A stretch of 64,000 bases of DNA, taken from positions 9,114,001 to 9,178,000 of the forward strand of contig NZ_CP034463.1 of the NCBI RefSeq assembly GCF_003955715.1. Reading direction: 5' to 3'. This document shows, piece by piece, positions 2,827 through 17,163 of this stretch. Within the stretch, counting starts at the first letter, position 1; the number at the start of each line of letters is the position of its first letter. The stretch is from Streptomyces aquilus. Lineage in GTDB: Bacteria > Actinomycetota > Actinomycetes > Streptomycetales > Streptomycetaceae. A model generated the notes under the pieces. It was not told the origin of the DNA, did not search any database, and worked only from the letters and a program-made list of their open reading frames with translations. Made by a program: the position numbers and the translations under genes.

Positions 2827-4019
2827 CAGCGGCTCCAGCGGGGGGTGATGGAGGGGAGGAGGGTCGCCAGGGCGGTGACGGCGGCAGCGGCGGCCCCGGT
2901 CAGCACGGGTGCGGCCGGGCCGAAGTGGGCGCTGCCCGCGGCGGCGGCGAGGCCCGCGACGACCGCGCCGGCCTTGGAGAAGAACTCCAGGGAGCCGAAC
3001 ATGCCGCCGGGCGCCCGCCCTTTGGCGCACTCCGCGGCCAGGACCTGAAGACACACCAGGCCGAGGGTGAGACCGGCGCCGAGCAGCAGCCGTACGGCGA
3101 TCAGCGCGGGCAGGTGCGCGGCGACGCCGTGTCCGGCGAGACCGAGGGCGATGAGGACGAACCCGAGCACGATCCCGGCCCGGGGACGGTCCCGGAAGGC
3201 GGAGTGCACGGCCAGCGCGGCCACCAGATAGCACAGGTGGGGGAGGGCGAAGAGCACTCCGGACAGGGTCGGCGAGGTGCCCGGCAGCCGCTCGTCGACC
3301 AGGGCGATGAGGTACGGGAAGGAGATGACGGTGGAGAACACGAACGCGAACTCCAGTGTGTACAGCGCCCGGAGCGAGATCACGGGAGCCGTCCGCGGAG
3401 GGGCGACGGCATCGGTCTTCCGCTGCTCGCCGGGCCCCGGTTCCGGCAGCGCCGCGAGCAGCAGCGCGGCCGTCAGCGGCAGTACGGCGAGCAGGGCGTA
3501 CTGGCGGTGCGGGGACAGCCAGCCGGACAGTGTGCCGACCACGATCGGCGCCACCACCAGCGCCGCCCGGGCGCTGCCCTGCATCAGGGTGAGCGCCTTG
3601 GACAGCGCCGGGCCTTCCAGGGCCGCGCCCAGATATCCGTTGGAGGCGGCGAACGTGCCGCCCAGGACACCCTGGAGGACGAGCGCCAGCGTGAAGGTCG
3701 CCAGCGAGTCGGCCCAGCCCGCCAGCAGGAACGCGACGGTGAGCCCCAACTGGGCTCGCAGCAGCAGGCGTTTGCGGCCGTAGCGGTCGGCGAGCCGCCC
3801 CCACAGGGGGGCCGCGAGCGCGCCGAACACGGTCGGCACGACATACAGGACCCCCGCCCAGCGGGCCTGGTGGTCGCCCAACTCCGGGAGGATCGCGGTG
3901 AGATACGGCGGCAGGCCGAGGGCCGCGAAGGAGGCAACGAAGTAGCAGCCCGCCACGGCGTGCACCTGGCCGCGCCCGAAGCCGCCGTGCGGCAGCCGGA
4001 CGGCCTGGGCGGCGCTCAT
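2826..4019 (-). CDS. MFS transporter, probable siderophore exporter (PvsC-like)
   Basis: A 397-residue major facilitator protein with about 12 hydrophobic segments. The first-half loop motif GRLADRYGRKRLL lies at about 73-85. It sits between the two NIS synthetase genes, with a 4-bp overlap upstream (ATGA) and a 1-bp overlap downstream, so it is part of the same transcript. An MFS exporter in exactly this slot is found in vibrioferrin-type operons (PvsC) and staphyloferrin operons, where it secretes the finished apo-siderophore. Export of the local product is therefore an inference from position. Nothing in the sequence gives substrate specificity. Confidence 0.88.
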   Translation of the reverse strand: MSAAQAVRLPHGGFGRGQVHAVAGCYFVASFAALGLPPYLTAILPELGDHQARWAGVLYVVPTVFGALAAPLWGRLADRYGRKRLLLRAQLGLTVAFLLAGWADSLATFTLALVLQGVLGGTFAASNGYLGAALEGPALSKALTLMQGSARAALVVAPIVVGTLSGWLSPHRQYALLAVLPLTAALLLAALPEPGPGEQRKTDAVAPPRTAPVISLRALYTLEFAFVFSTVISFPYLIALVDERLPGTSPTLSGVLFALPHLCYLVAALAVHSAFRDRPRAGIVLGFVLIALGLAGHGVAAHLPALIAVRLLLGAGLTLGLVCLQVLAAECAKGRAPGGMFGSLEFFSKAGAVVAGLAAAAGSAHFGPAAPVLTGAAAAAVTALATLLPSITPRWSR

Positions 4020-5659
4020 GCCGGACCCCCGTTCGTGAGCAGGTAGTTGGGGCCGGTGGTGTAGTGCTTGTTGACGTCGGTGGCGCCCGAACGCTCCTTG
4101 GACAGCAGCGTCCCGGCCGTGACCATCGCCTTCACCGGCAGCCGGGGCGCCCGCAGCACCCGGGTCCGCAGCACCTCCCCGGCGTCGCCGCCGAGCCGGT
4201 CCACCGCCTCCGCCAGCCGGTCCCGTACGAGGTCCAGCACGGCCCGGCGCAGCCACGGCAGCCCGAACGCGTAGGCGCCCGCGCACAGATGGACGGTGAT
4301 GGTGGTGAACACGTCGGCAACCGGCCCGTCGCCGTCGACATAGGTCCGCGCGTCGTCGAAACCCCACGGCCCTGGCAGGACCGCACCCAGCCGTGCGGGG
4401 TTGATCCGAGGCCCGTCGTCGTCCTTGAACAGCAGCCGCAGACTTCCGGGCCGCAGCACCAGCGAGACGTTCTGCTGATGCGACTCCAGCGCGACGCCGT
4501 AGCCGAACAGCGTGGTCTGCCAGTCGAAGAGCAGCGTCAGCAGGGCGTCCAGCAGGGCGAGCGGGTCGCCGCCGTAGAAGCGGTCGGCCAGGTGGTCGAG
4601 GACCAGCCGCCCGTCGGGCGCTTCGGCGAGCAGTGCGGCCAGCGGGACGACCTCGGCGTCGTCCAGCCCGGCCGGGAAACGGCGGCAGAGCACCGCCAGC
4701 AACTCGTGCCCGGCATGGGCGTACGTGGTCTCGTCGGCGTGCAGGATCGTGTCCCGGAACCGGGGTTCACGCGCGAGCACGGCCTCGACGAGCCGCTGTC
4801 CCGCCGCGCCGTCGACGAGGGTGCCGGGCTTGATGGACCGCTTGTTGCGCAGGCCCAACGTGGAGGTGGCGAGGGGGAGTTTCAGGTGGTGCGTGTCGTC
4901 CACGGCCACCGTGCGCATCGACAGGGTCGGTACGACGTCGAGGTGGGCGCGGTCGGCGAACAGGGCACCCTCGGGAAGGCCGGCCTCGCGCAGGGAGGCC
5001 ACGGTCAACGGGTGGACCGGCAGGGGCAGATGACTGCCCTCGGCCGCCGCCAGCCCGAGGTCGGTGCAACTGGGCCAGAACTTCGGGAGCGTTCCGGCGA
5101 GGGTGACGGACTCGCGGGGCACGGCCAGCCAGCGCAGGGCGAACCGTGGGTGGAACTCGGGTGCGTAGGAGCGCAGTTGATCCTCGGTGAGTCCTGCGCG
5201 GCCGCGAGCCGTGGGATACACGGGATGGTCGAGGCGGGCCGCGAGGGCGTCGTACGCGAGTGGTGGCCACCGGGTGGAGTCCGCGTCGAAGTCGACGGGC
5301 GAGGTCGCGTGCAGCCGCATGGTGGCCAGCGTCTGCCGGCACTCCTCGGCGAAGGCGTCGTAGCCGGCACGGTCGACGGGGTCGGCGAGGGCGCGCAGCG
5401 CGCTGAGGACGGTGTCGTACGAGCTGAGTTCCCCGCCGTCCGACTCGCGGACCAGCAGGGGCAGTCGGGCCGCGTACTCGCACTGGAAGCCGTCCTCGAC
5501 GACGGGCAGCAGGAGCGCGTCGCCCTCGGCGGGCAGCCGCAGCCAGGGGCCGTCCGGGCGTTCGACGAGGGTGCTGCGGGTGCGCAGGCCCACGACGTCC
5601 TCGCGGAGCAGGGCGCTGAGGACACGGGTCAGCAGCTGTGCCTCACACGTCGCCGTCAC
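4016..5659 (-). CDS. IucA/IucC-family NIS siderophore synthetase (PvsB-like)
   Basis: Second NIS synthetase, 547 residues. Recognisable segments are DHPVYPTARGRAGLT near 144-158 (the conserved HPxxPxxxxRxG block), a VHPLTVASL block, the ATP-site stretch TSTLGLRNKRSIKPGTLVDG, ESHQQNVSLVL and FKDDDGPRINP. I take the GTG at 5659 as start because it overlaps the stop of the ATP-grasp gene as GTGA; the open frame continues upstream only inside that gene. It differs clearly from the other NIS enzyme, so the two probably make two different bonds. The operon position matches PvsB. Confidence 0.9.
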   Translation of the reverse strand: MTATCEAQLLTRVLSALLREDVVGLRTRSTLVERPDGPWLRLPAEGDALLLPVVEDGFQCEYAARLPLLVRESDGGELSSYDTVLSALRALADPVDRAGYDAFAEECRQTLATMRLHATSPVDFDADSTRWPPLAYDALAARLDHPVYPTARGRAGLTEDQLRSYAPEFHPRFALRWLAVPRESVTLAGTLPKFWPSCTDLGLAAAEGSHLPLPVHPLTVASLREAGLPEGALFADRAHLDVVPTLSMRTVAVDDTHHLKLPLATSTLGLRNKRSIKPGTLVDGAAGQRLVEAVLAREPRFRDTILHADETTYAHAGHELLAVLCRRFPAGLDDAEVVPLAALLAEAPDGRLVLDHLADRFYGGDPLALLDALLTLLFDWQTTLFGYGVALESHQQNVSLVLRPGSLRLLFKDDDGPRINPARLGAVLPGPWGFDDARTYVDGDGPVADVFTTITVHLCAGAYAFGLPWLRRAVLDLVRDRLAEAVDRLGGDAGEVLRTRVLRAPRLPVKAMVTAGTLLSKERSGATDVNKHYTTGPNYLLTNGGPA

Positions 5660-6831
5660 GGCTGGATCTCCCAGCGCAGGCCCGCCAGGAAGTCGGCCGT
5701 CACCCGGTCCACCGTCGGCTGGTCGGTGCCGGTGGCCCGCAGGACGCCGAGGTAGTCGCGGTTGGTGCGGTACAGCTCGTGCCGCTCGCCGGTCGCCCGC
5801 AGCGGACGGTACATCAGGTGTGTGCCGTCCACGGTGAGTTCCGTGGCGGCCGGGGCCGTGGTGAGGAGGCCGGCGCGGTCGGCGCACGGGTACTCCAGGC
5901 GGGCGGCACCGTCACGGCGGGCGCCGAGGTCCGCCGGGAGCGGCTCGCCCAGGTGGGCGCGGAGGATGTGCTCGAAGAGCGGGATCTCCAGGAGCCGGGC
6001 CAGCAGCAGGTCGCACTGGTCGCCGATGGCCCGGTAGTTGACCTCGATGATCCGCGCCCGGCCCTCGTGCACCACGAACTCCGTGTGGCAGGCGCCGAAC
6101 CCGACGCCCAGCGCGTCCAGTTGGGCGAGGACCTGGGCGACCACCGGCTCGGGGTGGGCCGGGACGAAGGTGAGGCGTTCCTCGATGAAGTAGGGCGGGG
6201 GCGACAGCTCGGTGTGGAAGCCGCCGAGGACGTGCCGGACCTGCCTGTCGCCGAGGGTCTCCAGGGTGTAGAGCTCGCCGGGGAGGTACTCCTCCACGAC
6301 GAGGACCGCGTCCGGGCGGCGCTCGAAGATCTCCTTGGAACGGGTGGCCAGCTCCTCGGGACCGTCGACGAGGACGACGTCCTCGCTGGCGACGCCCTCG
6401 CGCGGCTTGACGACACAGGGGTAGGGGGCGTCGGGAAGGGCGGTCGGCGCGGTGATCTCCGTCGACCAGACCGTGTCCACGCCAACGGCGGCGAGCCGGC
6501 GGCGCATCTCCGCCTTGTCCTTGCAGCGCAGCGTGGCCCGCCAGTCCTTGCCGGGCAGGTCGAAGTAGGCGGCGGCCAGGGCGGCCTGGGTCTGGAGGTG
6601 GTCGCTGTTGGTGAAGACGGCGTCGGGGCGGTGGTGGGTGGAGATGCGGGCGACGACGGCCCGGAAGTCTCGGACGTCGCACTCCAGGACCTCGACGTCC
6701 GGATACGTGGCGCGGTGGGCGGCGGGCTGGTCGGTGAGGACGGTGACGTCCAGGCCCAGCCGGTGCGCGGCGGGCAGGAAGCCCTCGGTGACGGAGTCGG
6801 TCGGATTGAGGGCGAGCAGGTACAGGCGCAT
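5656..6831 (-). CDS. ATP-grasp ligase of siderophore biosynthesis (PvsA-like)
   Basis: A 391-residue ATP-grasp protein. The N-terminus (MRLYLLALNP) is the preATP-grasp Rossmann-like part. The ATP-grasp body has the lysine strand YPCVVKPREGVASEDV, the VVEEYLPGELYT segment, and the metal-binding end ARIIEVNYRAIGDQ. Such ligases form amide bonds through an acyl phosphate. In vibrioferrin operons the equivalent gene is first of five and is thought to join a keto acid to an amino acid; the same job is inferred here. It is the first biosynthetic gene after the ABC transporter block, 87 bp behind it, and overlaps the next gene by 4 bp. Part of the 87-bp gap is a strong hairpin. Confidence 0.88.
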   Translation of the reverse strand: MRLYLLALNPTDSVTEGFLPAAHRLGLDVTVLTDQPAAHRATYPDVEVLECDVRDFRAVVARISTHHRPDAVFTNSDHLQTQAALAAAYFDLPGKDWRATLRCKDKAEMRRRLAAVGVDTVWSTEITAPTALPDAPYPCVVKPREGVASEDVVLVDGPEELATRSKEIFERRPDAVLVVEEYLPGELYTLETLGDRQVRHVLGGFHTELSPPPYFIEERLTFVPAHPEPVVAQVLAQLDALGVGFGACHTEFVVHEGRARIIEVNYRAIGDQCDLLLARLLEIPLFEHILRAHLGEPLPADLGARRDGAARLEYPCADRAGLLTTAPAATELTVDGTHLMYRPLRATGERHELYRTNRDYLGVLRATGTDQPTVDRVTADFLAGLRWEIQP

Positions 6832-6871
6832 GAGGGAGAAGGAACTTCCGCTAGCGGGTGGGGGGTTGACG

Positions 6872-6905
6872 GGGGCGGGCCCGGCCGGGGGCCATGGCCC
6901 GCCCC
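6872..6905 (-). terminator. GC hairpin between transport and biosynthesis parts of the siderophore operon
   Basis: A perfect 10-bp stem, GGGGCGGGCC at 6872-6881 and GGCCCGCCCC at 6896-6905, with a 14-base loop. There is no T run after it on the leftward transcript. It may be a partial terminator or an RNA stabiliser that sets a lower level for the biosynthetic genes than for uptake. This is inference from structure alone. Confidence 0.45.
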
Positions 6906-6918
6906 GGTTCAGCGGGAG

Positions 6919-7938
6919 TTACTTGGCGGGGAGCTCGACGCCGGTGGCCTTGGCGACGTCCGCGAGCATCTGCTCCGCGGCCTGCACACCGATGCCGGAC
7001 ATCCAGGTCTCGTCCGGCACCTCGAAGACCTTGCCGTCCTTGACGGCCGGAAGGTCCTTCCACACCGGGTTGGAGGTGACCTGCTTCTTCTGGGTCTTGT
7101 CGTCGACGTCCGCGGAGGTGACGAAGATCAGGTCGGCGTCGGCCTGGTCGATCTCCTCCGGGCTCACGTCCTTCATCGTGACCTCGGGGTCGTCGGAGAC
7201 CTGCGAGGACGGCCGCTTGAAACCGATGTCGTTCAGGACGACGCCGCTGTAGGAGTTGGACTGGTACAGCCGGGTCGGACCGGCGATGAAGCGGACCACG
7301 GACGCGGTCGGCATGGTGCCGCCGTCCTTCTTCTTGATGGCCGCACCGAGCGCCTTGGCCCGCGTCTCGTACTCCTTGAGCTTGGCCGCGGCCTCCTTCT
7401 CCAGGCCCAGCGCCTCGGCGTGGACCTTGAGGTTCTCCTTCCAGACACCGCCGGTGGTCTCGGTGAAGACGGTCGGGGCGATCGCGCTGAGCTTGTCGTA
7501 GACCTTCTCGTGGCGGACCTTCGAGGACAGGATCAGGTCCGGCTTGAGGGAGGCGATCTTCTCCAGGTTGGGCTCCAGGAGCGGACCGACGTCGGCGGTG
7601 TCCTTCAACTCGCCCTTGAGATACGTCGGGAAGCCGCCCTCGGTCTTGAAGTGCGGGGCGACCGCGCCGACCGGGTCGATGCCGAGCAGCGTGACGTCGT
7701 CCAGCTCACCGGTGTCGAGGACGACGACCCGCTTGGGCTGGGACGGGATCTTCACGTCGCCCATGACGGTCTTGAGGGTGCGCGGGAAACCGGCCGCGTC
7801 GGCGGCGGGCTTGGCGGCGGAGTCGTCGGAGTCGGAGTCGGAGCCGCCGCAGGCGGCCAGGGCTGCCGTACCGAGTATCACGGCGAGCAGGGTGGCCAGA
7901 ATCCTTCTGATTCCGGGCAGGGGGAAGCGCTGGAACAT
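6919..7938 (-). CDS. Iron-siderophore ABC transporter substrate-binding lipoprotein
   Basis: A 339-residue FecB/FepB-class (type III) periplasmic-binding-type protein. The signal peptide ends in the lipobox LAAC with Cys30, followed by a serine/aspartate-rich linker. The mature part has the family opening KRVVVLDTGELDDVTLLGI, then a long interdomain helix and a second lobe. Its role is to catch ferric siderophore outside the membrane and hand it to the two FecCD permeases encoded upstream. It lies 32 bp after the ATPase gene and before the ATP-grasp gene. Which siderophore it binds is unknown, though the product of this locus is the obvious candidate. Confidence 0.93.
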   Translation of the reverse strand: MFQRFPLPGIRRILATLLAVILGTAALAACGGSDSDSDDSAAKPAADAAGFPRTLKTVMGDVKIPSQPKRVVVLDTGELDDVTLLGIDPVGAVAPHFKTEGGFPTYLKGELKDTADVGPLLEPNLEKIASLKPDLILSSKVRHEKVYDKLSAIAPTVFTETTGGVWKENLKVHAEALGLEKEAAAKLKEYETRAKALGAAIKKKDGGTMPTASVVRFIAGPTRLYQSNSYSGVVLNDIGFKRPSSQVSDDPEVTMKDVSPEEIDQADADLIFVTSADVDDKTQKKQVTSNPVWKDLPAVKDGKVFEVPDETWMSGIGVQAAEQMLADVAKATGVELPAK

Positions 7939-7970
7939 GGGGGGTTGTTCTTTCTGGGTAGGTGAGCGGG

Positions 7971-8804
7971 TCAGGCGGTCGCGGCGGAGCGCCGGGCCGC
8001 GCTGCTTCTCGGGACGACCAGCGGGGTGCCGGTCTCCGGGTCGGGGACGACCCGGCAGTCCACGTCGAACACGGACTTGACCAGCTCCGCGTCGAGGACG
8101 TCCGCCGGGGCACCGGCGGCGGCGAGCCGGCCGTCCTTGAGGACCACCATGTGGTCCGCGTAACGGGCGGCCTGTCCGAGGTCGTGCAGCACCATCACCA
8201 CGGTACGGCCCGCCTCGGCGTGCAGTTCGGCGACCAGGTCGAGCACGTCGAGCTGGTGCCTGAGGTCGAGGAAGGTGGTGGGTTCGTCGAGCAGGAGCAG
8301 CTCGGTGTCCTGTGCCAACGCCAGGGCGATCCAGGCGCGTTGCCGCTGACCGCCGGAGAGCCGGTCCACGGCCTGGTCGCGCAGGGACGTGGTGCCGGTG
8401 CGCTCCAGAGCCTCGTCGACCGCCTTCTGGTCGGCCGCCGACCAGGGGCTGAGCAGCCGCTGGTGCGGGTAGCGGCCCAGCCGTACGAGGGCCTCGACGG
8501 TGATCGCCTCGGGCGTGACCGGCTGTTGCGGCAGCAGACCCATGCGCAGGGCCAGGGCCTTCGCGGGCATGCGGTGGATGTCGGAGCCGTCGAGGGTGAC
8601 GGTGCCGGCCGACGGGGCCAGCAGGCGGCTCAGGCCGCGCAGCAGCGTCGACTTGCCGCAGGCGTTGGGGCCGACGATCGCGGTGACGGCGCCGCCGGGA
8701 AGGGTGAGGTCGAGGCCGCCGACGACGAGCCGGTCGCCGTAGCGGAGGTCGAGGCCCTCGGTGGCGAGCTGGTTGGGCGTGTTCACGGGCGTCTTCGCGG
8801 TCAT
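7971..8804 (-). CDS. Siderophore ABC transporter ATP-binding protein (FecE/FhuC type)
   Basis: A 277-residue ABC ATPase. The Walker A is GPNACGKST at about 45-53, the Q-loop is LLPQQ, the signature is LSGGQRQRAW, the Walker B is LLLLDEPTTFLD, and the switch histidine is in VLHDLGQAARYAD. This set, including the RLGRYPHQ segment, is typical of ferric-siderophore importers. The ATG at 8804 overlaps the permease stop as ATGA. The C-terminal tail (RSSAARRSAATA) is slightly longer and more basic than usual. Confidence 0.95.
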   Translation of the reverse strand: MTAKTPVNTPNQLATEGLDLRYGDRLVVGGLDLTLPGGAVTAIVGPNACGKSTLLRGLSRLLAPSAGTVTLDGSDIHRMPAKALALRMGLLPQQPVTPEAITVEALVRLGRYPHQRLLSPWSAADQKAVDEALERTGTTSLRDQAVDRLSGGQRQRAWIALALAQDTELLLLDEPTTFLDLRHQLDVLDLVAELHAEAGRTVVMVLHDLGQAARYADHMVVLKDGRLAAAGAPADVLDAELVKSVFDVDCRVVPDPETGTPLVVPRSSAARRSAATA

Positions 8805-9811
8805 GCGTGGCTCCTCTGGACGGGCGAGCTCTGCCGGAACATCAGCACCAGCAGCCAGGGCGCGCCGAGCGTGGCCGTCACCGCGCCGACGGGCAGCCCC
8901 TCGATCGGCAGCAGGTGCTGCACCACCAGGTCGGAGGCGAGCAGCAGCACCGCCCCCGTGAGTCCGGCGAGGGCGAGGGACACGGCGGTCGGCGGCCCGG
9001 TGAGGAACCGCACGATGTGCGGCACGGCGAGCGCGACGAAGGTCACGGGGCCGGCGAGCGAGGCGGCCAGGGAGGCCAACACGACGGCCAGGACCAGGAG
9101 TTGGAGGCGTGCCGTGGCCGTGTTGAGACCGAGGGCGCCCGCCGAGTCGTCCCCGAGATCGAGCACGGCCAGCCTGCGGTGCAGGACGAACGCGGCGGCG
9201 AGTGCGACCAGCAGGGCGCCGCCCGCACCCCACACCTCCGTCCACGTCCGCCCGTACACCGAACCCGTGGTCCATTGCAGCGCCGACCCGGCGAGCTCGG
9301 CCGGGAAGCGCACGATCATCAGGTTCACGGCGGCGGCGAGGCCCGCCTGGACCGCGAGGCCGGTGAGTACAAGGCGGGTGACGGAGAGCCCGGAACCCCA
9401 GGCGAACACGCCGAGCAGCAGGGCCGACAGGAGCCCACCGGCCAACGCGCCCAAGGGGATCAGGGTCTGCGAGGCGCCGGCCGCGAGGAGGGCGACCGCG
9501 CCCAGCGAGGCCCCGCCGGTCACCCCCATGACGTCCGGGGACGCCAGCGGATTGCGGAACAGCCGTTGCAGGACACAGCCCGCGACCCCGAGCCCGGCAC
9601 CGCCGGCGATCGCCGCCACCGAGCGGGGCGCCCGGAACTGCTGCACCACCAGTACGTCACCGCCGTCGCCGAGCCCGACGAGGGCGCGCAGGGCCGTGCC
9701 GGCCGGGATGCGCATCTCGCCGGTCGTCAGGGAGACGGTGAGCAGCGCGAAGAGTGTCAGAAGCCCCAGGAAGGCGAAGACCAGGACCCGGGTACGAACA
9801 CCGCTCGTCAT
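8801..9811 (-). CDS. FecCD-family siderophore ABC permease
   Basis: A 336-residue permease with about nine to ten hydrophobic helices. It contains the typical FecCD stretches FRNPLASPDVMGVTGGASLGA and GPVTFVALAVPHIVRFLTG, which couple to the ATPase. It is the second of two tandem permeases, which pair to form one importer. The start at 9811 overlaps the stop of the first permease as ATGA, and its own stop overlaps the ATPase start. An upstream in-frame extension of more than 300 codons lies inside the first permease gene and was discarded. Confidence 0.94.
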   Translation of the reverse strand: MTSGVRTRVLVFAFLGLLTLFALLTVSLTTGEMRIPAGTALRALVGLGDGGDVLVVQQFRAPRSVAAIAGGAGLGVAGCVLQRLFRNPLASPDVMGVTGGASLGAVALLAAGASQTLIPLGALAGGLLSALLLGVFAWGSGLSVTRLVLTGLAVQAGLAAAVNLMIVRFPAELAGSALQWTTGSVYGRTWTEVWGAGGALLVALAAAFVLHRRLAVLDLGDDSAGALGLNTATARLQLLVLAVVLASLAASLAGPVTFVALAVPHIVRFLTGPPTAVSLALAGLTGAVLLLASDLVVQHLLPIEGLPVGAVTATLGAPWLLVLMFRQSSPVQRSHA

Positions 9812-10836
9812 CGGGCCACCTTCCGGGCCAGCAGCGCCAGGAGGGGCGCGCCCAGGAACGCGGTCACGATGCCGACCTCCAGCTCCGAGGGGCGCAGCAC
9901 CATCCGGCCGAGCACATCGGCCGACAGCAGGAGCAGCGGGCCCGCGATCAGACAGCCGGGCAGCAGCAGCCGGTGGTCGGCGCCGAGCAGCGGTCGTACG
10001 AGATGGGGGGCGGCCAGGCCGATGAAGGCGACCGGTCCCGCCACCGCGACCGCCGACCCGGCGAGCAGGACGACCGCGATGCCGCCCGCGAGCCGGATGC
10101 GGGCCACCGGGACACCGAGGGACTGGGCCGAATCGTCGCCCAGGGCAAGGGCGTTGAGGGCGGGGGAGACGGCCAGCGCGACGACGATCCCGAGCAGCAG
10201 CGTCGGCAGGACCGGCCACAGCGTGTCGAGCGGGCGCCCGGCCAGGGAACCGGCGAGCCAGAAGCGGGCCTCGTCGAGCGTGCGCTGGTTCAGCAGCATC
10301 ACCGCCGACGTCCAGGACAGCAGCACGAGTTGGAGCACGGTGCCGCCGAGCGCGAGCCGTACCGGATCGATGTCCCCGGCGCGGCGGGCCAGCGCCTGGG
10401 CGAACAGCGCCGCCGCGGCGGCACCGGCGAACGCGAACCACACATATTCGACCGGGTCGTTGAGCTTCAGCGCGAAGATCGCGACGACGACCGCGAAGGA
10501 CGCGCCCGCGTTGATGCCGAGGGTGGTCGGCGAGGCGAGCGGGTTGCGGGTGATTGCCTGCGCAACGGCACCGGCGACGCCCAACGCGGCGCCGACCACG
10601 AGGCCGATGACGGTCCGCGGCAGCCGCAGCCCGGTCACGACGAGCGCGTCCCGCCCGTGGGCATCGCCGAAGAGGGCTTCGACCACCGTGGGGAGCGGTA
10701 CGGAGCGGGTGCCGAGCGCGAGGCTCAGTGCGGTGCACAGGGTCAGGGCGGCGAGGCCGGTCAGGAGGAGCGGTATGTGCCTGAAGGCACGGAAGGGCAC
10801 ACCTGTGGGGGGTGCGCCCCGTTGGGTCGCAGTCAC
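9808..10836 (-). CDS. FecCD-family siderophore ABC permease, first gene of the operon
   Basis: A 342-residue FecCD permease with the ITRNPLASPTTLGINAGASFAV and GPVAFIGLAAPHLVRPL blocks. Start is GTG at 10836 (MTATQRGAPPTG). No Shine-Dalgarno is visible, and the iron box ends only 12 bp upstream of this codon. The transcript may therefore be leaderless or have a very short leader. As first gene it defines the promoter of the whole leftward run of nine genes, all linked by overlaps or gaps below 90 bp. Expression should rise when iron is scarce. Confidence 0.93.
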   Translation of the reverse strand: MTATQRGAPPTGVPFRAFRHIPLLLTGLAALTLCTALSLALGTRSVPLPTVVEALFGDAHGRDALVVTGLRLPRTVIGLVVGAALGVAGAVAQAITRNPLASPTTLGINAGASFAVVVAIFALKLNDPVEYVWFAFAGAAAAALFAQALARRAGDIDPVRLALGGTVLQLVLLSWTSAVMLLNQRTLDEARFWLAGSLAGRPLDTLWPVLPTLLLGIVVALAVSPALNALALGDDSAQSLGVPVARIRLAGGIAVVLLAGSAVAVAGPVAFIGLAAPHLVRPLLGADHRLLLPGCLIAGPLLLLSADVLGRMVLRPSELEVGIVTAFLGAPLLALLARKVAR

Positions 10837-10971: not shown

Positions 10972-11853
10972 ATGCCCGTGGCCCTGAAGACCTCACCGGA
11001 CGGTGCCGTCGCCCAAGCGCTCGGTGACGGCTATCGGCGGCTGGCGGCTCTCTGCGAGGCGCTGGACGTGCGCGTCGCGCCCGCGGGGCGAGGGGGCGTG
11101 ACGGCGGCCGAGTTGGCGACCGATCGTGCCGCGCTGGAGGCCTTCGTCGAGGCGGAGGCGGCACGCGTTCACGATCGCTACGGTGTGCGCCCCCGCCCGG
11201 ACGTCGCCGCGTCCCGTGCCCTGCACGACTACGCCTGGACCGTCGGCATGCTCATGGGCGGCCCCTGGTACCTCGAACGCCGAGTGCCGGGCATCCGCCC
11301 CGAGGACCTTCGCCTCGACCTCGCCTCGGGGACGTACACCATCACCCCCGGAAGCGAACTCGCCTGTCTGGCCGACGACCCGGTGGTCGGCCTGCCCGGC
11401 GTGCTGACGTTCCCTCAGGAGGAGCAGCTGCGCGCCCAGTTGAGGATGGCGCTCGCCGAACACATGCGTCCCCTGCTCGCCGCGATCGGTCCCGTCACCC
11501 GCCGCCGCTCACGCGCCCTGTGGGGCATGGTCTCCGACGACCTCGTCTCCGCCCTGTGGTACCTCGGGCGGACGCTCGGCCAGGAAGACGCCGCGATCAC
11601 AGCCGCCACCGAGGTGCTGCCGGTGGCCGTACCGCCGTACCCGAGTGGCGCCGACTTCCGCCACCTGGCCGGGTCGGACGGCCGCCGCCATCCCACCCGG
11701 ACCCGTACCGGCTGCTGCATGTTCTACGCGATCCGCCCGGCCGAGGCCTGCTCCACGTGTCCGCGCACCGGTGACGCCGAACGGCTGCGCCGCCTGGAGA
11801 GCCAGGGAAACGTCACGACTCCTGCCGGAGCGGCGGCCTCCGGCCTAGGGTGA
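10972..11853 (+). CDS. FhuF-like siderophore-iron reductase, (2Fe-2S)-binding
   Basis: About 293 residues. The C-terminal part holds GCCMFYAIRPAEACSTCPR, a Cys-Cys-x10-Cys-x2-Cys motif that binds an unusual [2Fe-2S] cluster in FhuF-type ferric-siderophore reductases. The protein would release iron in the cytoplasm by reducing the imported complex. I chose ATG 10972 over an upstream TTG at 10939 because the TTG lies inside the iron box and a GGGAG ribosome site precedes the ATG by 8 bases. It is divergent from the transport/biosynthesis operon and has its own iron box, so it is co-induced with it. Confidence 0.87.
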   Translation: MPVALKTSPDGAVAQALGDGYRRLAALCEALDVRVAPAGRGGVTAAELATDRAALEAFVEAEAARVHDRYGVRPRPDVAASRALHDYAWTVGMLMGGPWYLERRVPGIRPEDLRLDLASGTYTITPGSELACLADDPVVGLPGVLTFPQEEQLRAQLRMALAEHMRPLLAAIGPVTRRRSRALWGMVSDDLVSALWYLGRTLGQEDAAITAATEVLPVAVPPYPSGADFRHLAGSDGRRHPTRTRTGCCMFYAIRPAEACSTCPRTGDAERLRRLESQGNVTTPAGAAASGLG

Positions 11854-11857
11854 GGCG

Positions 11858-12331
11858 ATGACCGCCGCCCAAGAGACCTCCGCGTCCACGCCGTCGACCG
11901 AACCCGACGCCAGCCAAGAGACCCCCGTCCAGGTGCCGTCGACCGAACTCGGCGCCGTCCACGCCTCCACCACCCTGCTGGAACGCCTCGCCGAGAAGCT
12001 CGGCGGCAAGGCCACCGTCAGTGCCGTGTACGGCGCGCCGATCACCGGGGACGGCGTCACCGTCGTCCCCGTCGCCCGGGTCAGCTTCGGCTTCGGCGGC
12101 GGTACCGGGCATGGGAGCGGCACCGCGCGCAGCGGGGAGGGAGGCGGCGGGGGAGGCGGTGTCGACGCCAGGCCGCTCGGCTACATCGAGATCAAGGACG
12201 GTACGGCCGTCTACAAGCCCATCCGCGACCCGTGGGTCGACATCGCGCTCCCGTTCGCAGGCATGCTGGTCGGCATCGTCGGGTCGAAGTCGGTGCGGGC
12301 CCTGGTACGAAGGCGCAACCGCCGCCCCTGA
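11858..12331 (+). CDS. GerW (YtfJ)-family sporulation protein
   Basis: A 157-residue member of the GerW/YtfJ family. The core begins LLERLAEKLGGKATVSAVYGAPI. It then has VVPVARVSFGFGGG, a glycine-rich stretch, and the GYIEIKDGTAVYKPI strand. A C-terminal hydrophobic helix (IALPFAGMLVGIVG) is followed by a basic tail. The first 40 residues are a low-complexity S/T/P/E leader. In Bacillus the family member is needed for lysozyme-type spore germination; in Streptomyces its exact job is not settled. It follows the reductase by four bases, but its codon and function context do not suggest an iron role. Confidence 0.88.
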   Translation: MTAAQETSASTPSTEPDASQETPVQVPSTELGAVHASTTLLERLAEKLGGKATVSAVYGAPITGDGVTVVPVARVSFGFGGGTGHGSGTARSGEGGGGGGGVDARPLGYIEIKDGTAVYKPIRDPWVDIALPFAGMLVGIVGSKSVRALVRRRNRRP

Positions 12332-12431
12332 GCGCGGAGTTCGCTCCACGGGCGGCGGGGTCGGCGGCCAGGGGGAGGCGCCGTACACGGACGGCCGGGT
12401 CGGCGGCCAGAGGAGGCGCCGTGGAGGACGG

Positions 12432-13754
12432 TCACCGCGCTCCCGCCCACAGCCCGTAACCCCTGGTCAGGATGGCGTGCGGGTCGTAGCGCTCCTTGGC
12501 GTGGGCGAGGTCGGCCCAGGCGGGGCCGAAGTGGCTTCGCCAGTCCTCCGGCGTCATCGCCAGCGCGCTCATGGGGTGCAGGACCCCGCCGACGGCTCGG
12601 GCCCGCTCGTACAGTGCGCGATTGGCGGCGACCATGCGGCGGACCGTGTCCGGGGCCGCGGGCGGCGCGGTGCGCATCACGGAGAGCAGACACAGGAGTT
12701 CACCGGCCGGCCTGCGCAGCATCGGCGCGCGCAGCGTACGGCCGTTCAGCGGGCGCAGCTGCACGACTCCACAGGTGCGCAGGCCCTGCTGCTCGGGCTC
12801 GGTGAGCGCACCCGGGACACAGGCTTCGGCCACCTCCTCCGGGAGCAGCAGGCCGAGCCACGGGTGCGGGCGGTCCCACTCGCCGGTGGCGCGCAGCAGC
12901 CGTTCGTCGCGGTCCAGACGATGCAGGTACTCGGCGTACGACAGGTCCTCGATCTCCTGGGTGTCCCGGTCGTGGCCGAGGTCGCCGATCAACAGGTCGT
13001 CGACACAGGGGAGTTCGCCGTCGTGCGGGGCGACCGCCTCGATCATGTAGCGCCAGCCGCCGCCGAGGGCCGGGCGGGCCTGGCCCTCGACATGGGTGAA
13101 CCGGCTGTCGCGGGCGATGCGCCGCTGGTCGGCGAAGTAGGAGCCGGGACCGTCGTGGTAGAGCCGGTAGCGACGGACCCGTTCGGGTGCGGGTACCAGG
13201 CGCAGGACTGCCCGCAGGATCAGCGCGCACTGGCCGAGACCCGCCAGGACCGCCCGGAAGAGGTCCGGGTGCCGTTCGGCGGAGCAGACGAGCCGCTCGC
13301 CGGTGCCCGTGACCACCTCCAACTCCCTTAACCAGTCGGCGACGAGCCCGCACCGGTGACTGGAGGCGCCGAAGCCGCCGGTGCTGAGCACCCCGCCGAC
13401 GCTGGCGCCGAGATGGTCGGGGAGGACGGGGGGTACGAGGCCCACGGCCAGTGTGGCGCGTACGACGTCACCCCAGGTCGCACCCGCCCCGGCGGCCAGC
13501 GTCCGCTCGCCCGGCACGCAGCGCACCTCGTTCAGGGCGCCCATGTCGAGGACGTAACCGCCGTCGGCCTGGCTCTGCCCGTACGGGGCGAGTCCGCGGC
13601 CGCGGGCCGTGACCGGCAGCCGGTGCCGGTCCGCGAAGGCGACCAGGCCCTGGACCTCTGCACCGGAGCGCGGCGAGAGGACGTCGAGCGGCCGGGACTC
13701 GACGATGTGGCCGAAATCGTGCGCGGCGAATGCCCTGTCGCGGATTGCATTCAT
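12432..13754 (-). CDS. Cytokinin oxidase/dehydrogenase-like FAD flavoprotein
   Basis: A 440-residue FAD-linked oxidase. The PCMH FAD-binding half has RGRGLAPYGQSQADGGYVLDM (about 51-71) and GGVLSTGGFGASSHRCGL. The C-terminal half carries the cytokinin-dehydrogenase family features WLGLLLP, HPMSALAMTPEDWRSHFGP and the closing AKERYDPHAILTRGY. Cytokinin dehydrogenases cleave the isopentenyl side chain of adenine cytokinins. The start at 13754 overlaps the isopentenyltransferase stop as ATGA, which ties the two functions. One oddity: plant enzymes have a His in a GHS motif that binds FAD covalently, and here the aligned residue is Leu55 (GLA). Flavin would then be non-covalent. The function is inferred from family and pairing. 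Confidence 0.82.
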   Translation of the reverse strand: MNAIRDRAFAAHDFGHIVESRPLDVLSPRSGAEVQGLVAFADRHRLPVTARGRGLAPYGQSQADGGYVLDMGALNEVRCVPGERTLAAGAGATWGDVVRATLAVGLVPPVLPDHLGASVGGVLSTGGFGASSHRCGLVADWLRELEVVTGTGERLVCSAERHPDLFRAVLAGLGQCALILRAVLRLVPAPERVRRYRLYHDGPGSYFADQRRIARDSRFTHVEGQARPALGGGWRYMIEAVAPHDGELPCVDDLLIGDLGHDRDTQEIEDLSYAEYLHRLDRDERLLRATGEWDRPHPWLGLLLPEEVAEACVPGALTEPEQQGLRTCGVVQLRPLNGRTLRAPMLRRPAGELLCLLSVMRTAPPAAPDTVRRMVAANRALYERARAVGGVLHPMSALAMTPEDWRSHFGPAWADLAHAKERYDPHAILTRGYGLWAGAR

Positions 13755-14521
13755 GCTGCACGCTCCACTGCCGTCGCCCCGGAACCGGAATCCATTGTTC
13801 GGCCGTCGAAAATTTCGGAGAACACCCGGTGCTGGAGAAATCCGTGCTCGGCGTGCCGTTCGGCGATCAGCGTGGCCATGCGGTCCAGAACGTGCGCGGA
13901 AATCGGCTGTTCGCCGATGGTCGGCACGTCGATTCCGTACTTGGCGCAGCATTCGAGGACCGCCTCGAAGCCGTTCACGGACGCCGCGAGCCACCGCTGC
14001 CGGGGCTCGCGCCAGAGCGCGGCGAGTTCGTCGAGGAGGCTGCGGCCGGGCGGGTCCGGGACGAGCATCTCGTGGGCCCGGCGGGTGAGGTTCGCGACGT
14101 ACTCGGCCCGGTCGGGCGGCGCGAGCAGCTGGACCGTCAGCCGCCAGTCCAGCGCGGTCCGCCGGGCGGCGAGCTCCCGCAGCAGGGAGATCGAACCACC
14201 CTCGACGATCACCAGGCGGTGCCGGTGGCCGAGCCGCTCCACCAGCGCGACCAGCGCGTCCGTGGCCGCCGCGGCACACAGGTCGCCGTCGGCGAAGGTA
14301 CGGTCCCCGAGCCAGTGGCGGCGCACACCCGGTACGTCGGCGCCCGCGCGGGCGCTGGTGGTGGCCAGGTCGGTGAAGCACTGCAACCGGTCGGCGACCA
14401 CGACCGGGGCGCCGGTTTCCCGGGCCAGCGCGGTGGCCGCCGCGCTCTTGCCGACACCGGTCGGCCCGGCGATGAGGCGGACGCACGGACGAGCTGCGGA
14501 ACGCGGGTCGCTGTGGACCAT
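13751..14521 (-). CDS. ipt: Isopentenyltransferase (IPT) for cytokinin biosynthesis, Tzs/FasD type
   Basis: A 256-residue adenylate dimethylallyltransferase. The P-loop GPTGVGKS is at 19-26. ADRLQCF (43-49) matches the agrobacterial Ipt/Tzs DRVQCC block. VEGGSISLLRELA matches the Ipt EGGSISLL motif, and LWREPRQRW matches its LWNEPRLRP segment. Length (Ipt about 240) and motifs separate it from tRNA-modifying MiaA, which is longer and has a DSMQVYR-type block. It would move an isopentenyl group from DMAPP or HMBDP to AMP. ATG 14521 is preferred over GTG 14569 because GGAAGGGGA lies about 10 bases upstream. It is coupled to the dehydrogenase gene. No LOG phosphoribohydrolase gene is visible in the window. 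Confidence 0.85.
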   Translation of the reverse strand: MVHSDPRSAARPCVRLIAGPTGVGKSAAATALARETGAPVVVADRLQCFTDLATTSARAGADVPGVRRHWLGDRTFADGDLCAAAATDALVALVERLGHRHRLVIVEGGSISLLRELAARRTALDWRLTVQLLAPPDRAEYVANLTRRAHEMLVPDPPGRSLLDELAALWREPRQRWLAASVNGFEAVLECCAKYGIDVPTIGEQPISAHVLDRMATLIAERHAEHGFLQHRVFSEIFDGRTMDSGSGATAVERAA

Positions 14522-14776
14522 GACGGGATGTCCCCTTCCACTCCGGCTGCGGGGCGAGCCAGCGTCCACCTAAGCGCGAAAGGACACGGCGAAGAACCAG
14601 GCAGGGATCTGGACCGGGCAAAGAGAGAGCCACATTCCTGTGGACTTGTTAAAGGTTGAATTTCACGGGGTGAACGGCCCGGGCGAAGGGAATCCAGAAC
14701 CCCATGAGAAACCGTCGAGTTATTCCTGACGGGTTCTTGACGCCTTTACGAGAAATCCTCACCCGGAGGTCGTTCC
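14522..14776. promoter_or_regulatory. Divergent promoter region between ipt and the transketolase-like gene
   Basis: A 255-bp non-coding stretch with a lower GC share than the flanking genes, especially at 14640-14760 (for example tgttaaaggttgaatttcac). It must hold the promoters of the cytokinin pair and of the rightward gene. I found no convincing palindrome and do not assign -10/-35 boxes. Confidence 0.4.
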
Positions 14777-15358
14777 GTGCAGTCCGACATGCTCCTCGCC
14801 GCCACCGAGTCCCTCCCGCAGGACGGCCCCGGCGGTGGCACCCTCCTCCTGGGCTACGGCGCCGAGGAGGAACTGAATCGGTTCGCGGCCACCCCCGGAT
14901 GGACCGTGCACGTGCCGGGGCACCCCGACGAGGTGCGCAGGGCCGTGCTGGGCGCGGTGCGGGAGGGGGAGCGGGCGTACGTGCATGTCTCCGCCGAGTC
15001 CAACGCCGAGCCGCGCGGCGGCGGGGAGGGCTTCGAGCGCGTACGGGACGGGCTCGGCGGTGTGGTCCTCGCGGTCGGCGCCACGCTCGACCCGGTGCTG
15101 CGCGCCACCGCCGGGCTGGACGTGACCGTGCTCTACGCGACCACCGTCCGTCCCTTCGACGAGATCGGCCTGCGGACGGCCGCCCTCGCCGCCGACCGCG
15201 CGGACGTCGTCCTGGTCGAACCCGGCCGCCCGGGGATCTTGGCGGGGCACGTCGCCGAGACCCTGATCCATGTACCGCACCGGCTGCTGGTCCTGGGCGC
15301 GGCGGACACCCGCGACGAGCCGGCGCTCGGCCGGGCCGTACGGGACTTCCTGACCTGA
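14777..15358 (+). CDS. Transketolase C-terminal half-like protein (short)
   Basis: A 193-residue protein that matches only the last part of the transketolase/pyruvate dehydrogenase beta chain. Residues 1-75 look like the end of a pyrimidine-binding domain (PGHPDEVRRAVLGAVREGERAYVHVS). Residues 90-193 are the C-terminal domain with VVLAVGATLDPVLRA, VLYATTVRPFD and ADVVLVEPGRPGILAGHVAE. The thiamine-pyrophosphate binding chain is absent, so it cannot be a complete enzyme by itself. Start is GTG 14777, with GGAGGT 7 bases upstream. The frame is clean, so it may be a functional remnant or partner. Plant-pathogen fas loci carry transketolase-like FasB/FasC next to ipt and ckx, which makes the neighbour suggestive. 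Known short Streptomyces transketolase-like proteins are another explanation. Confidence 0.72.
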   Translation: MQSDMLLAATESLPQDGPGGGTLLLGYGAEEELNRFAATPGWTVHVPGHPDEVRRAVLGAVREGERAYVHVSAESNAEPRGGGEGFERVRDGLGGVVLAVGATLDPVLRATAGLDVTVLYATTVRPFDEIGLRTAALAADRADVVLVEPGRPGILAGHVAETLIHVPHRLLVLGAADTRDEPALGRAVRDFLT

Positions 15359-15448: not shown

Positions 15449-16534
15449 ATGGCGCAGGAAGTACGCGGCGTGATCGCACCGGGCAAGGACGAGCCGGTCC
15501 GGGTGGAGACGATCGTGGTGCCCGACCCGGGACCGGGCGAGGCCGTGGTGCGGATCCAGGCGTGCGGCGTGTGCCACACCGACCTGCACTACAAACAGGG
15601 CGGCATCAGTGACGACTTCCCCTTCCTGCTGGGCCACGAGGCCGCGGGAGTGGTCGAGTCGGTGGGGGAGGGCGTCACGGACGTCGCCCCCGGTGACTTC
15701 GTGATCCTCAACTGGCGTGCGGTGTGCGGGCAGTGCCGGGCCTGTCTGCGCGGACGCCCCTGGTACTGCTTCAACACCCACAACGCGAAGCAGAAGATGA
15801 CCCTGACCGACGGCACCGAGCTGTCGCCCGCCCTGGGGATCGGCGCGTTCGCGGAGAAGACGCTGGTCGCGGCGGGACAGTGCACCAAGGTCGACCCCTC
15901 GGTGTCCCCGCAGGTCGCGGGCTTGCTCGGCTGCGGGGTGATGGCCGGCATCGGCGCCGCGATCAACACCGGCAACGTCGGCCGGGGTGACACCGTCGCC
16001 GTCATCGGCTGCGGCGGCGTCGGAGACGCGGCGATCGCCGGGTCGAACCTCGCGGGCGCGGCGCGGATCATCGCGGTGGACATCGACGACCGCAAGCTGG
16101 AGAAGGCCCGCACCATGGGCGCCACCCACACGGTCAACTCGCGTGAGACGGACGCCGTGGAGGCGATCCGCGAACTGACCGGAGGCTTCGGCGCCGACGT
16201 CGTCATCGAGGCGGTCGGCCGCCCGGAGACCTACCAGCAGGCCTTCTACGCCCGTGACCTCGCCGGCACGGTCGTCCTGGTCGGCGTGCCCACCCCGGAG
16301 ATGAAGCTCGAACTGCCGCTGCTGGACGTGTTCGGCCGCGGTGGCGCGCTGAAGTCCTCCTGGTACGGCGACTGCCTGCCCAGCCGCGACTTCCCCATGC
16401 TGATCGACCTGCATCTGCAAGGCCGCCTGGACCTGGAGGCGTTCGTGACCGAGACCATCGAACTCACCGACGTGGAGAAGGCGTTCGAGCGCATGCACCA
16501 CGGCGACGTCCTGCGCTCGGTGGTGGTGCTCTGA
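15449..16534 (+). CDS. mscR: S-(hydroxymethyl)mycothiol dehydrogenase / S-nitrosomycothiol reductase
   Basis: A 361-residue zinc alcohol dehydrogenase of the mycothiol-dependent class. [14 protein letters not shown] and GHEAAG give the catalytic zinc ligands. [15 protein letters not shown] gives the four-cysteine structural zinc site. The Rossmann motif is [12 protein letters not shown]. The [20 protein letters not shown] stretch is characteristic of the mycothiol enzymes. It oxidises the formaldehyde-mycothiol adduct in the cytosol. GAAGGAAGGG lies upstream of the ATG. The next gene starts on the last base of its stop (TGATG), and that metallo-hydrolase is the usual partner. Confidence 0.9.
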
Positions 16535-17163
16535 TGACCGCCCGCATCGAACGCCTCGTCACCTCCGGCCAGTTCAGCCTCGACGGCGGTACCTGGGACG
16601 TGGACAACAACGTGTGGATCGTCGGCGACGACCACGAGGTCGTCGTCATCGACGCCGCGCACGACGCCCGGGCGATCGCCGAAGCCGTGGGCGAGCGCCG
16701 GCTGACGGCGATCGTGTGCACCCACGCCCACAACGACCACATCGACGCCGCGCCCGAACTGGCGGACCTCACCGGCGCCACCATCTGGCTGCACCCCGAC
16801 GACCTGCCGCTGTGGAAGCAGACCCACCCCGACCGCGACCCCGACGCCCACCTCCAGGACGGCCAGGTCATCGAGGCCGCGGGCGCCGACCTGCGGGTCC
16901 TGCACACCCCCGGGCACGCGCCCGGCGCGGTCTGCCTCTACGACCCCGGGCTCGCCACGGTCTTCACGGGCGACACGCTGTTCGCCGGCGGACCGGGGGC
17001 GACGGGTCGGTCGTACAGCCACTTCCCGACGATCATCGACTCCATCCGCGACCGGCTGCTGGAGCTGCCGCCGGAGACGAAGGTCCTGACCGGGCACGGC
17101 GACTCCACGACCATCGGGGCGGAGGCCCCGCAGCTGGAGGAGTGGATCGCCCGGGGCCACTGA
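16534..17163 (+). CDS. MBL-fold metallo-hydrolase, partner of the mycothiol dehydrogenase
   Basis: A 209-residue metallo-beta-lactamase fold protein with THAHNDHIDAA (the HxHxDH metal motif, about 65-75), HTPGHAPGA, FTGDTLFAGG and the final TGHGDSTTIG. These give the glyoxalase-II-like dinuclear metal site. It is co-transcribed with the dehydrogenase and in this setting is taken to hydrolyse the S-formylmycothiol product to formate and mycothiol. That assignment rests on synteny. Length is normal for a small glyoxalase-II-like enzyme. Confidence 0.88.
   Translation: MTARIERLVTSGQFSLDGGTWDVDNNVWIVGDDHEVVVIDAAHDARAIAEAVGERRLTAIVCTHAHNDHIDAAPELADLTGATIWLHPDDLPLWKQTHPDRDPDAHLQDGQVIEAAGADLRVLHTPGHAPGAVCLYDPGLATVFTGDTLFAGGPGATGRSYSHFPTIIDSIRDRLLELPPETKVLTGHGDSTTIGAEAPQLEEWIARGH

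What the first reader, a model, noticed from the sequence alone, without database searches (positions are those of the whole stretch)
12432..14521. Coupled cytokinin ipt-ckx pair without the rest of a fas operon
Seen: a Tzs/Ipt-type isopentenyltransferase (DRLQCF, EGGSISLL, LWREPR) overlapping by 4 bp a cytokinin-dehydrogenase-like flavoprotein. In plant-associated actinomycetes (Rhodococcus fascians, Streptomyces turgidiscabies) fasD and fasE lie side by side in a larger operon with P450, ferredoxin and LOG genes, none of which is seen here. Making and degrading a cytokinin from one mRNA suggests production of a defined or modified cytokinin, or an adenine-derived signal of another kind.
Basis: partly seen in the sequence, partly recalled or inferred. 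Interest (0 to 1): 0.75.

Follow-up and report, generated by a model that had tools for sequence, protein, structure and literature searches.

The report
Streptomyces relative of fas cytokinin operon
A pair of bacterial genes for making and oxidising a plant-hormone-like molecule turns out to be what is left of a larger gene cluster shared by many Streptomyces, related to but different from the one that lets gall-forming bacteria deform plants.

Summary
The ipt-ckx pair is real: an IPT (13751-14521, -) overlaps a CKX-like flavoprotein (12432-13754, -) by ATGA, as fasD/fasE do in Rhodococcus fascians. The IPT falls with actinobacterial FasD types, not MiaA.

"Without the rest of a fas operon" is only partly right. 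The divergent neighbour (14777-15358, +) is a truncated FasC homologue (44% identity). The genome has a LOG, fused to a polyketide-type acyltransferase (LOG-AT), about 468 kb away. No FasA (P450) or FasB homologue lies in the window.

In 27 of 52 named loci from an IPT scan the same layout recurs: short FasC, divergent from IPT-CKX-LOG(-AT)-ABC exporter, with gaps in some. Nearest kin show stepwise loss: S. justiciae has everything; S. antibioticus lacks the local LOG-AT but shares the distant one; the window has also lost the exporter.

In 28 distinct cluster CKXs the catalytic Asp is always kept, but the flavin-anchoring set is dismantled: proximal Tyr is His in 28 of 28, the His ligand is lost in 24 of 28. 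Eighteen CKXs from genomes without such an IPT keep the set. The pair is under purifying selection.

Best reading: a variant fas-type prenyl-adenine locus with a probably non-covalent CKX. Product and activity are untested.

The parts
13751..14521 (-). ipt: FasD-type adenylate isopentenyltransferase, 256 aa
   Evidence: PF01745 179.7 bits; 39.9% to FasD; tree
12432..13754 (-). ckx-like FAD oxidoreductase, 440 aa; catalytic Asp113 kept, flavin-anchoring residues L/H/H instead of H/Y/Y
   Evidence: PF01565 + PF09265; 40.2% to FasE; model and fold search; residues
13751..13754 (-). 4-base ATGA overlap of ipt stop and ckx start
   Evidence: sequence; same ATGA in R. fascians fasD/fasE
14777..15358 (+). 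fasC-like: truncated transketolase-type protein, 193 aa, divergent from ipt
   Evidence: 44% to FasC 93-260, E 1e-37; homologue in 10 of 12 fetched genus loci
14522..14776 (.). 255-bp divergent spacer between fasC-like and ipt
14616..14653 (.). conserved 38-bp block with dyad CCACAGGAATGTGG at 14630-14643, possible shared control site (chosen after seeing the alignment)
   Evidence: 83% mean identity over 14 loci against 63% and 65% beside it
11803..12428 (.). place where relatives carry LOG(-AT) and the ABC exporter; here only a small Spore_YtfJ-like ORF (11858-12331, +)
   Evidence: similarity to L044 stops at 11802 and resumes at 12429, apart from one weak 95-base match to another part of L044; gene orders

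Best explanation
The pair is the reduced form of a fas-type cytokinin locus that occurs in many Streptomyces chromosomes and differs from the canonical fas operon. IPT prenylates AMP with a C5 prenyl diphosphate. The LOG half of a LOG-AT fusion encoded about 468 kb away releases the free N6-prenyladenine. The co-translated CKX-like protein oxidises the prenyl side chain of the same product, probably with non-covalently held FAD, and so sets its level. Shown here: families, clade, gene order, conservation, loss steps, residue changes, purifying selection. Inferred: every reaction, the in-trans pairing with the distant LOG-AT, non-covalent FAD, and the physiological role.
For: Homologues of FasC, FasD and FasE side by side in the window. 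Window-type layout in 27 of 52 named loci. IPT tree: window with S. antibioticus and S. justiciae 100/98; actinobacterial rows apart from rhizobial types 100/99. LOG-AT shared with S. antibioticus in largely collinear surroundings. Catalytic Asp kept in 28 of 28 distinct cluster CKXs while proximal Tyr is lost in 28 of 28 and His in 24 of 28. Omega against S. antibioticus 0.23 (IPT) and 0.17 (CKX). CKX fold: the best 34 of 50 Foldseek rows shown are CKXs.
Against: No activity is shown. In maize CKX1 mutation of the FAD-linking His is reported to cost structural integrity, and NoCKX1, which lacks GHS and the Asp, is inactive and FAD-free (PMC8234997; PMC4574047; passages). The LOG-AT is far away, and no test links it to the pair. 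The exporter is lost. Related loci decay repeatedly: L085, L086, L087, L120, G011, G182. FasE is dispensable for R. fascians virulence (PMC7261884, passages).
Confidence: 0.48

Rival explanations
1. Repurposed biosynthetic pathway: the CKX-like protein is no longer a degrader but a tailoring oxidase; with LOG-AT (acyl transfer) and the ABC exporter the full cluster makes and secretes a modified, perhaps acylated, prenyl-adenine, of which the window strain makes a simpler or split version.
For: Cluster CKXs share clade-wide changes at the flavin anchor and in the cytokinin domain (Arg for Tyr in 28 of 28, Gln or Glu for Leu in 28 of 28). LOG is fused to an AT with catalytic Ser (24 of 26 rows) and His (26 of 26) but without the Arg of polyketide ATs (0 of 26). 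A dedicated exporter is full length in 24 of 27 loci.
Against: CKX keeps the catalytic Asp and overall CKX fold, so plain degradation is possible. AT is missing or broken in 10 of 27 loci (one ends with its contig), so acyl transfer is not essential to the cluster. No product is known.
Confidence: 0.28
2. Decaying leftover: the pair is on its way to loss and makes nothing that matters in this strain.
For: Local LOG-AT and exporter gone; kin show deletions and frameshifts in other members (L085, L086, L087, L120); G011 has lost IPT and LOG-AT, G182 IPT. Omega of the FasC-like gene against S. antibioticus is 0.54.
Against: Both ORFs are intact; omega 0.17-0.36 for IPT and CKX in all eight window comparisons; the shared distant LOG-AT is intact in two species.
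Confidence: 0.19
3. Plain cytokinin turnover: the CKX serves to use or detoxify outside cytokinins and the IPT link is secondary.
For: CKX-type genes (query P0078, E up to 1e-60) occur in 67 of 295 genus genomes, strong IPTs in 12 of 295; G182 keeps CKX-LOG-AT-exporter without IPT.
Against: The 18 CKXs examined from IPT-less genomes, other than the decayed clusters of G011 and G182, keep the canonical site, unlike the window's; in the window CKX overlaps a dedicated IPT.
Confidence: 0.05

Closest known systems
fas operon of Rhodococcus fascians pFiD188 (fasA-F)
   Same: Homologues of FasC, FasD and FasE; fasD/fasE overlap by ATGA
   Different: Here FasC is truncated and divergent; FasA and FasB are absent from the window; LOG is fused to an acyltransferase and lies elsewhere; CKX lacks the flavin-anchoring residues that FasE has
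Canonical fas genes of Streptomyces turgidiscabies Car8 (on the island PAISt according to PMC4057263, passages)
   Same: FasD-type IPT in the same genus
   Different: Car8's fasD is 53% to R. fascians FasD with a FasB homologue (62%) nearby; Car8 also has a second locus, L094, of the window's type
Cytokinin dehydrogenase (CKX; plants, FasE)
   Same: Fold, PF09265, catalytic Asp, DFG, HPW and HFG motifs
   Different: His ligand and both flavinylation Tyr replaced by L, H, H
IPT-LOG fusion gene of R. fascians A21d2 (PMC4092121, passages; hit H3)
   Same: A fas-less actinobacterial cytokinin gene with a LOG fusion
   Different: There LOG is fused to IPT; here LOG is fused to an acyltransferase and IPT overlaps CKX

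Membership tests
Adenylate isopentenyltransferase (PF01745, Tzs/FasD type) | Match to PF01745 over its cut-off and not over the MiaA cut-off | tested here: met
   179.7 bits (cut-off 20); MiaA 29.4 bits (cut-off 148.65)
Adenylate isopentenyltransferase (PF01745, Tzs/FasD type) | Groups with FasD rather than with MiaA | tested here: met
   MiaA rows apart with SH-aLRT 100 (quick tree with one misread row); actinobacterial FasD-type rows together 100/99 against rhizobial types
Adenylate isopentenyltransferase (PF01745, Tzs/FasD type) | Prenylates AMP, ADP or ATP | not testable with these tools
   needs an enzyme assay
Cytokinin dehydrogenase (CKX) | FAD-binding and cytokinin-binding domains, CKX fold | tested here: met
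Cytokinin dehydrogenase (CKX) | Catalytic Asp | tested here: met
   D113
Cytokinin dehydrogenase (CKX) | GHS His that binds FAD covalently, with the Tyr residues of flavinylation | tested here: not met
   L, H, H in the window where FasE has H60, Y118, Y393; hence called CKX-like
Cytokinin dehydrogenase (CKX) | Cleaves cytokinins to adenine and an aldehyde | not testable with these tools
   needs an enzyme assay
fas operon | fasD and fasE side by side | tested here: met
   39.9% and 40.2%
fas operon | fasC, full length and in the same operon | tested here: not met
   a truncated, divergent FasC homologue is present
fas operon | fasF (LOG) in the operon | tested here: not met
   not in the window; LOG-AT about 468 kb away
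fas operon | fasA (P450) and fasB (ferredoxin part) | tested here: not met
   neither in the window; FasB best 37% in the genome; FasA not searched genome-wide

The most novel reading that the evidence does not exclude
The full Streptomyces cluster is a dedicated natural-product pathway in which an IPT, a CKX that has lost its covalent flavin anchor and become a biosynthetic oxidase, and a LOG-acyltransferase fusion build a modified (acylated or side-chain-oxidised) N6-prenyladenine that its own ABC transporter exports; the window strain keeps a split version of it.
Probability: 0.28. Interest if true: 0.75.

Novelty: new variant of a known kind. Interest (0 to 1): 0.57.

Why it matters
One survey whose passages I read found fas genes among its Streptomyces only in pathogenic S. 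turgidiscabies and one sister group (PMC10711302). Here a distinct fas-like locus occurs in 27 named loci, many from species that, as far as I recall, are not plant pathogens. If it is active, cytokinin-type chemistry in this genus would be commoner than thought and its role not mainly virulence. The natural series (canonical CKX; CKX without the proximal Tyr but with His; CKX with Q, Y or L) makes it directly testable whether and how a CKX works without covalent flavin. The LOG-AT fusion is a domain pair that none of my paper searches found described.

Tried and rejected
Rejected: IPT as MiaA. CKX as an alditol or hexose oxidase or another VAO-type protein. 'No LOG in the genome': four PF03641 matches, one of them in the LOG-AT fusion. 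'LOG-AT simply cut out of this cluster in this strain': S. antibioticus shares the distant copy, and that copy resembles strain LUP47B's (76%) more than the other cluster copies (66-69%), so it may have been acquired. My first impression, from eight relatives, that loss of the His is universal in the cluster was wrong: 4 of 28 distinct cluster CKXs and 21 of 131 rows keep His with DH. In a first count the 36 cluster rows held eight copies of the same gene from two collections or fetches; I use the 28 distinct ones. Rows left out of that count: FasE, L100, L102, L086 (broken), and L068, L157 and L153 (cluster-type CKXs of the IPT-less genomes G182 and G011; QDHH, QDHH, QDHY). The quick IPT tree held a Car8 row read on the wrong strand; one search replaced it. 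A few rows of the 131-row alignment are odd or misaligned at the Asp column (G or E) and carry no claim. A family not listed by VIA-align is not thereby excluded.

Led nowhere: search for an exporter orthologue in the own genome (best 36%, paralogues only); Pfam on the gene beside the distant LOG-AT (no family); paper searches for a LOG-AT fusion or a Streptomyces ipt/CKX gene cluster (no paper).

Full report

ANOTHER FAS GENE. Tblastn of the R. fascians fas genes against the whole window hits FasD (39.9%), FasE (40.2%) and also FasC, within 14777-15358 on the plus strand; FasA, FasB and FasF give nothing. That 193-aa protein aligns at 44% with FasC residues 93-260 (E 1e-37). It scores below Pfam's cut-offs, which may be why it escapes notice. 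It lacks the part that matches the first ~90 residues of FasC, so much of the pyrimidine-binding domain is missing and thiamine catalysis on its own is unlikely (inference).

RELATIVES IN THE GENUS. In 295 same-genus genomes (G000 included) strong IPT matches (169-184 bits; all weaker ones 33 or less) occur in 12 genomes with 13 genes. I took stretches (10 of about 20 kb, two shorter by contig) around the 12 genes outside the window. Ten of the 12 show the short FasC divergent from IPT-CKX, with LOG or LOG-AT behind and, except in L036, an ABC exporter; genes are broken in L046. The two loci of G120 differ (L045: FasC, IPT, LOG, no CKX). L037's gene after CKX has both PF03641 (LOG) and PF00698 (acyltransferase), and the next one PF00664 and PF00005.

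NAMED RELATIVES. A scan of named genomes with the IPT alignment gave 52 loci. I count 27 as window type (short FasC beside IPT; L069-L094 and L098). Of these 27 the full-length genes are: CKX in 25, LOG in 23, AT in 17, exporter in 24. The misses are L085 and L086 (CKX); L069 and L085-L087 (LOG); L069, L074, L075, L079, L085-L087, L091, L093 and L098 (AT); L079, L080 and L090 (exporter); L079 ends with its contig. The other 25 loci are: three canonical Rhodococcus operons (L106-L108); two S. cylindrosporus loci with full FasC and FasB divergent from IPT-CKX-LOG (L100, L102); FasC divergent from IPT-LOG without CKX (L095, L096, and L099 on a short contig); 16 loci with IPT, with or without LOG, mostly Lentzea, Nocardia and other genera; and one decayed locus without IPT (L120). 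The S. cylindrosporus loci look like a halfway stage (inference).

LOSSES NEXT TO THE WINDOW. S. justiciae (91% IPT) has the whole set. S. antibioticus (94%) lacks the local LOG-AT and keeps the exporter. The window has neither: DNA similarity to L044 stops at 11802 and resumes at 12429, apart from one weak 95-base match to another part of L044. No exporter orthologue was found in the genome (best 36%). But a LOG-AT fusion of 516 aa lies at G000 9596478-9598025, about 468 kb from ipt. S. antibioticus has it too (92%), about 444 kb from its IPT on the same contig and in largely collinear surroundings, while the one LOG-AT found in S. justiciae is the local one (69%). The distant copy is closest to that of strain LUP47B (76%), so relocation and acquisition are both open. 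LOG-AT (E up to 1e-100) is in 9 of 295 genus genomes, 8 of which have a strong IPT; the ninth, G182, has CKX-LOG-AT-exporter without IPT.

THE CKX. In FasE the flavinylation residues are H60, D117, Y118 and Y393 (PMC4574047, passages; found so in L047). In the window they are L, D, H, H. In 28 distinct cluster CKXs: H60 is Y 12, Q 9, H 4, L 3; D117 is D in 28; Y118 is H in 28; Y393 is H 23, Y 3, L 2. Eighteen CKXs from genus genomes without a strong IPT are HDYY in 18 of 18; they are those among the 30 loci returned by a search with a canonical-type query, and the two other IPT-less genomes among the 30, G011 and G182, hold cluster-type CKXs with Q, D, H in clusters that have lost IPT. In a second set of 131 CKXs all 53 rows with Y118 keep His, and every row without His has lost Y118. 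On a tree of 91 of them, built without these columns, the His state changes at least 7 times (quick tree). The simple reading is that loss of the proximal Tyr came first and freed the His. Two more cluster-specific changes lie in the cytokinin domain, beside a conserved Pro: Arg334 for Tyr (28 of 28) and Gln or Glu at 332 for Leu (28 of 28). The text I read says that FAD is covalent in active CKXs, that mutating the His costs integrity, that one cyanobacterial CKX with apparently non-covalent FAD is nevertheless active (unpublished data cited there), and that NoCKX1, lacking GHS and the Asp, is inactive and FAD-free (PMC8234997; PMC4574047). Here the Asp is kept, so activity is plausible but unproven.

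SELECTION. Nei-Gojobori omega, window against S. antibioticus: IPT 0.23, CKX 0.17, FasC-like 0.54; against S. justiciae 0.32, 0.20, 0.32. The pair is constrained; for the FasC-like gene the evidence is weaker. Pairwise values cannot tell whether constraint continued after the losses.

IPT SPECIFICITY. The position of Tzs Asp173 (counted's alignment; that Asp173 and His214 steer HMBDP use is recalled, and PMC4092121 speaks of such residues and of Ala in FasD, passages) is Asn in the window and Ala in FasD; the His214 position is kept. HMBDP use is thus possible, not shown.

LOG-AT. Over 26 rows (some partial or broken, two of one strain): PGGxGTxxE in 22, a GxSxG-type Ser in 24, the AT His in 26, and the Arg of the AARGRLM motif of polyketide ATs in 0 of 26, mostly Leu. 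That this Arg binds the carboxylate of malonyl-type donors is recalled; its loss suggests another acyl donor. Among the best 120 of 264 protein clusters listed, 58 (P0121-P0178) carry both PF03641 and PF00698, and those whose source names an organism are Streptomyces; the other 62 carry PF00698 without PF03641.

REGULATION. A 38-bp block in the 255-bp divergent spacer is 83% identical over 14 loci against 63% and 65% beside it (17 aligned; S. antibioticus, S. justiciae and L071 left out). The block was picked after seeing the alignment. It suggests shared control of fasC-like and ipt-ckx.

NOVELTY. FasD/FasE genes and Streptomyces fas genes are known. The passages I saw of PMC8234997, PMC4092121, PMC7261884, PMC10711302, PMC8369830, PMC4057263 and PMC4574047 do not describe this second cluster, its CKX changes or LOG-AT; the paper searches were made, over an open-access library only. 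S. turgidiscabies Car8 carries both types. I call it a new variant of a known kind.

Noticed in passing
window 2-10800 (-): Siderophore-type locus: two IucA/IucC synthetases, PLP decarboxylase, ATP-grasp, MFS, periplasmic binding protein, then ABC permease and ATPase-like genes (by eye), with a FhuF_C-type gene at 10972-11853.
   Followed up: partly
window 15470-17163 (+): S-(hydroxymethyl)mycothiol dehydrogenase and an MBL-fold hydrolase beside the locus; homologues lie beside the cluster in most fetched genus loci.
   Followed up: no
L094 and L129 (S. turgidiscabies Car8): Two IPT loci in one genome: a canonical fasD with FasB nearby, and a second locus of the window's type; a further FasB-like gene (55%) lies on contig C124.
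   Followed up: partly
L175 (G011) and L176 (G182): Clusters that kept CKX and exporter but lost IPT (only a scrap left in G011, none found in G182).
   Followed up: partly
genus search: CKX-type genes in 67 of 295 genus genomes, far more than strong IPTs (12 of 295); what Streptomyces does with lone CKXs is open.
   Followed up: no
L049 (Streptomyces sp. NBC_00445 plasmid); L144 (Ensifer adhaerens plasmid): Other IPT contexts: IPT near an egtD-annotated gene, MFS transporters and an alpha/beta hydrolase; P450, idi and IPT on an Ensifer plasmid.
   Followed up: no
L051 11680-11937 (-): Transposase fragment about 1.7 kb from the distant LOG-AT; no similarity to S. antibioticus there over about 11.66-12.43 and 12.90-15.12 kb.
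   Followed up: no
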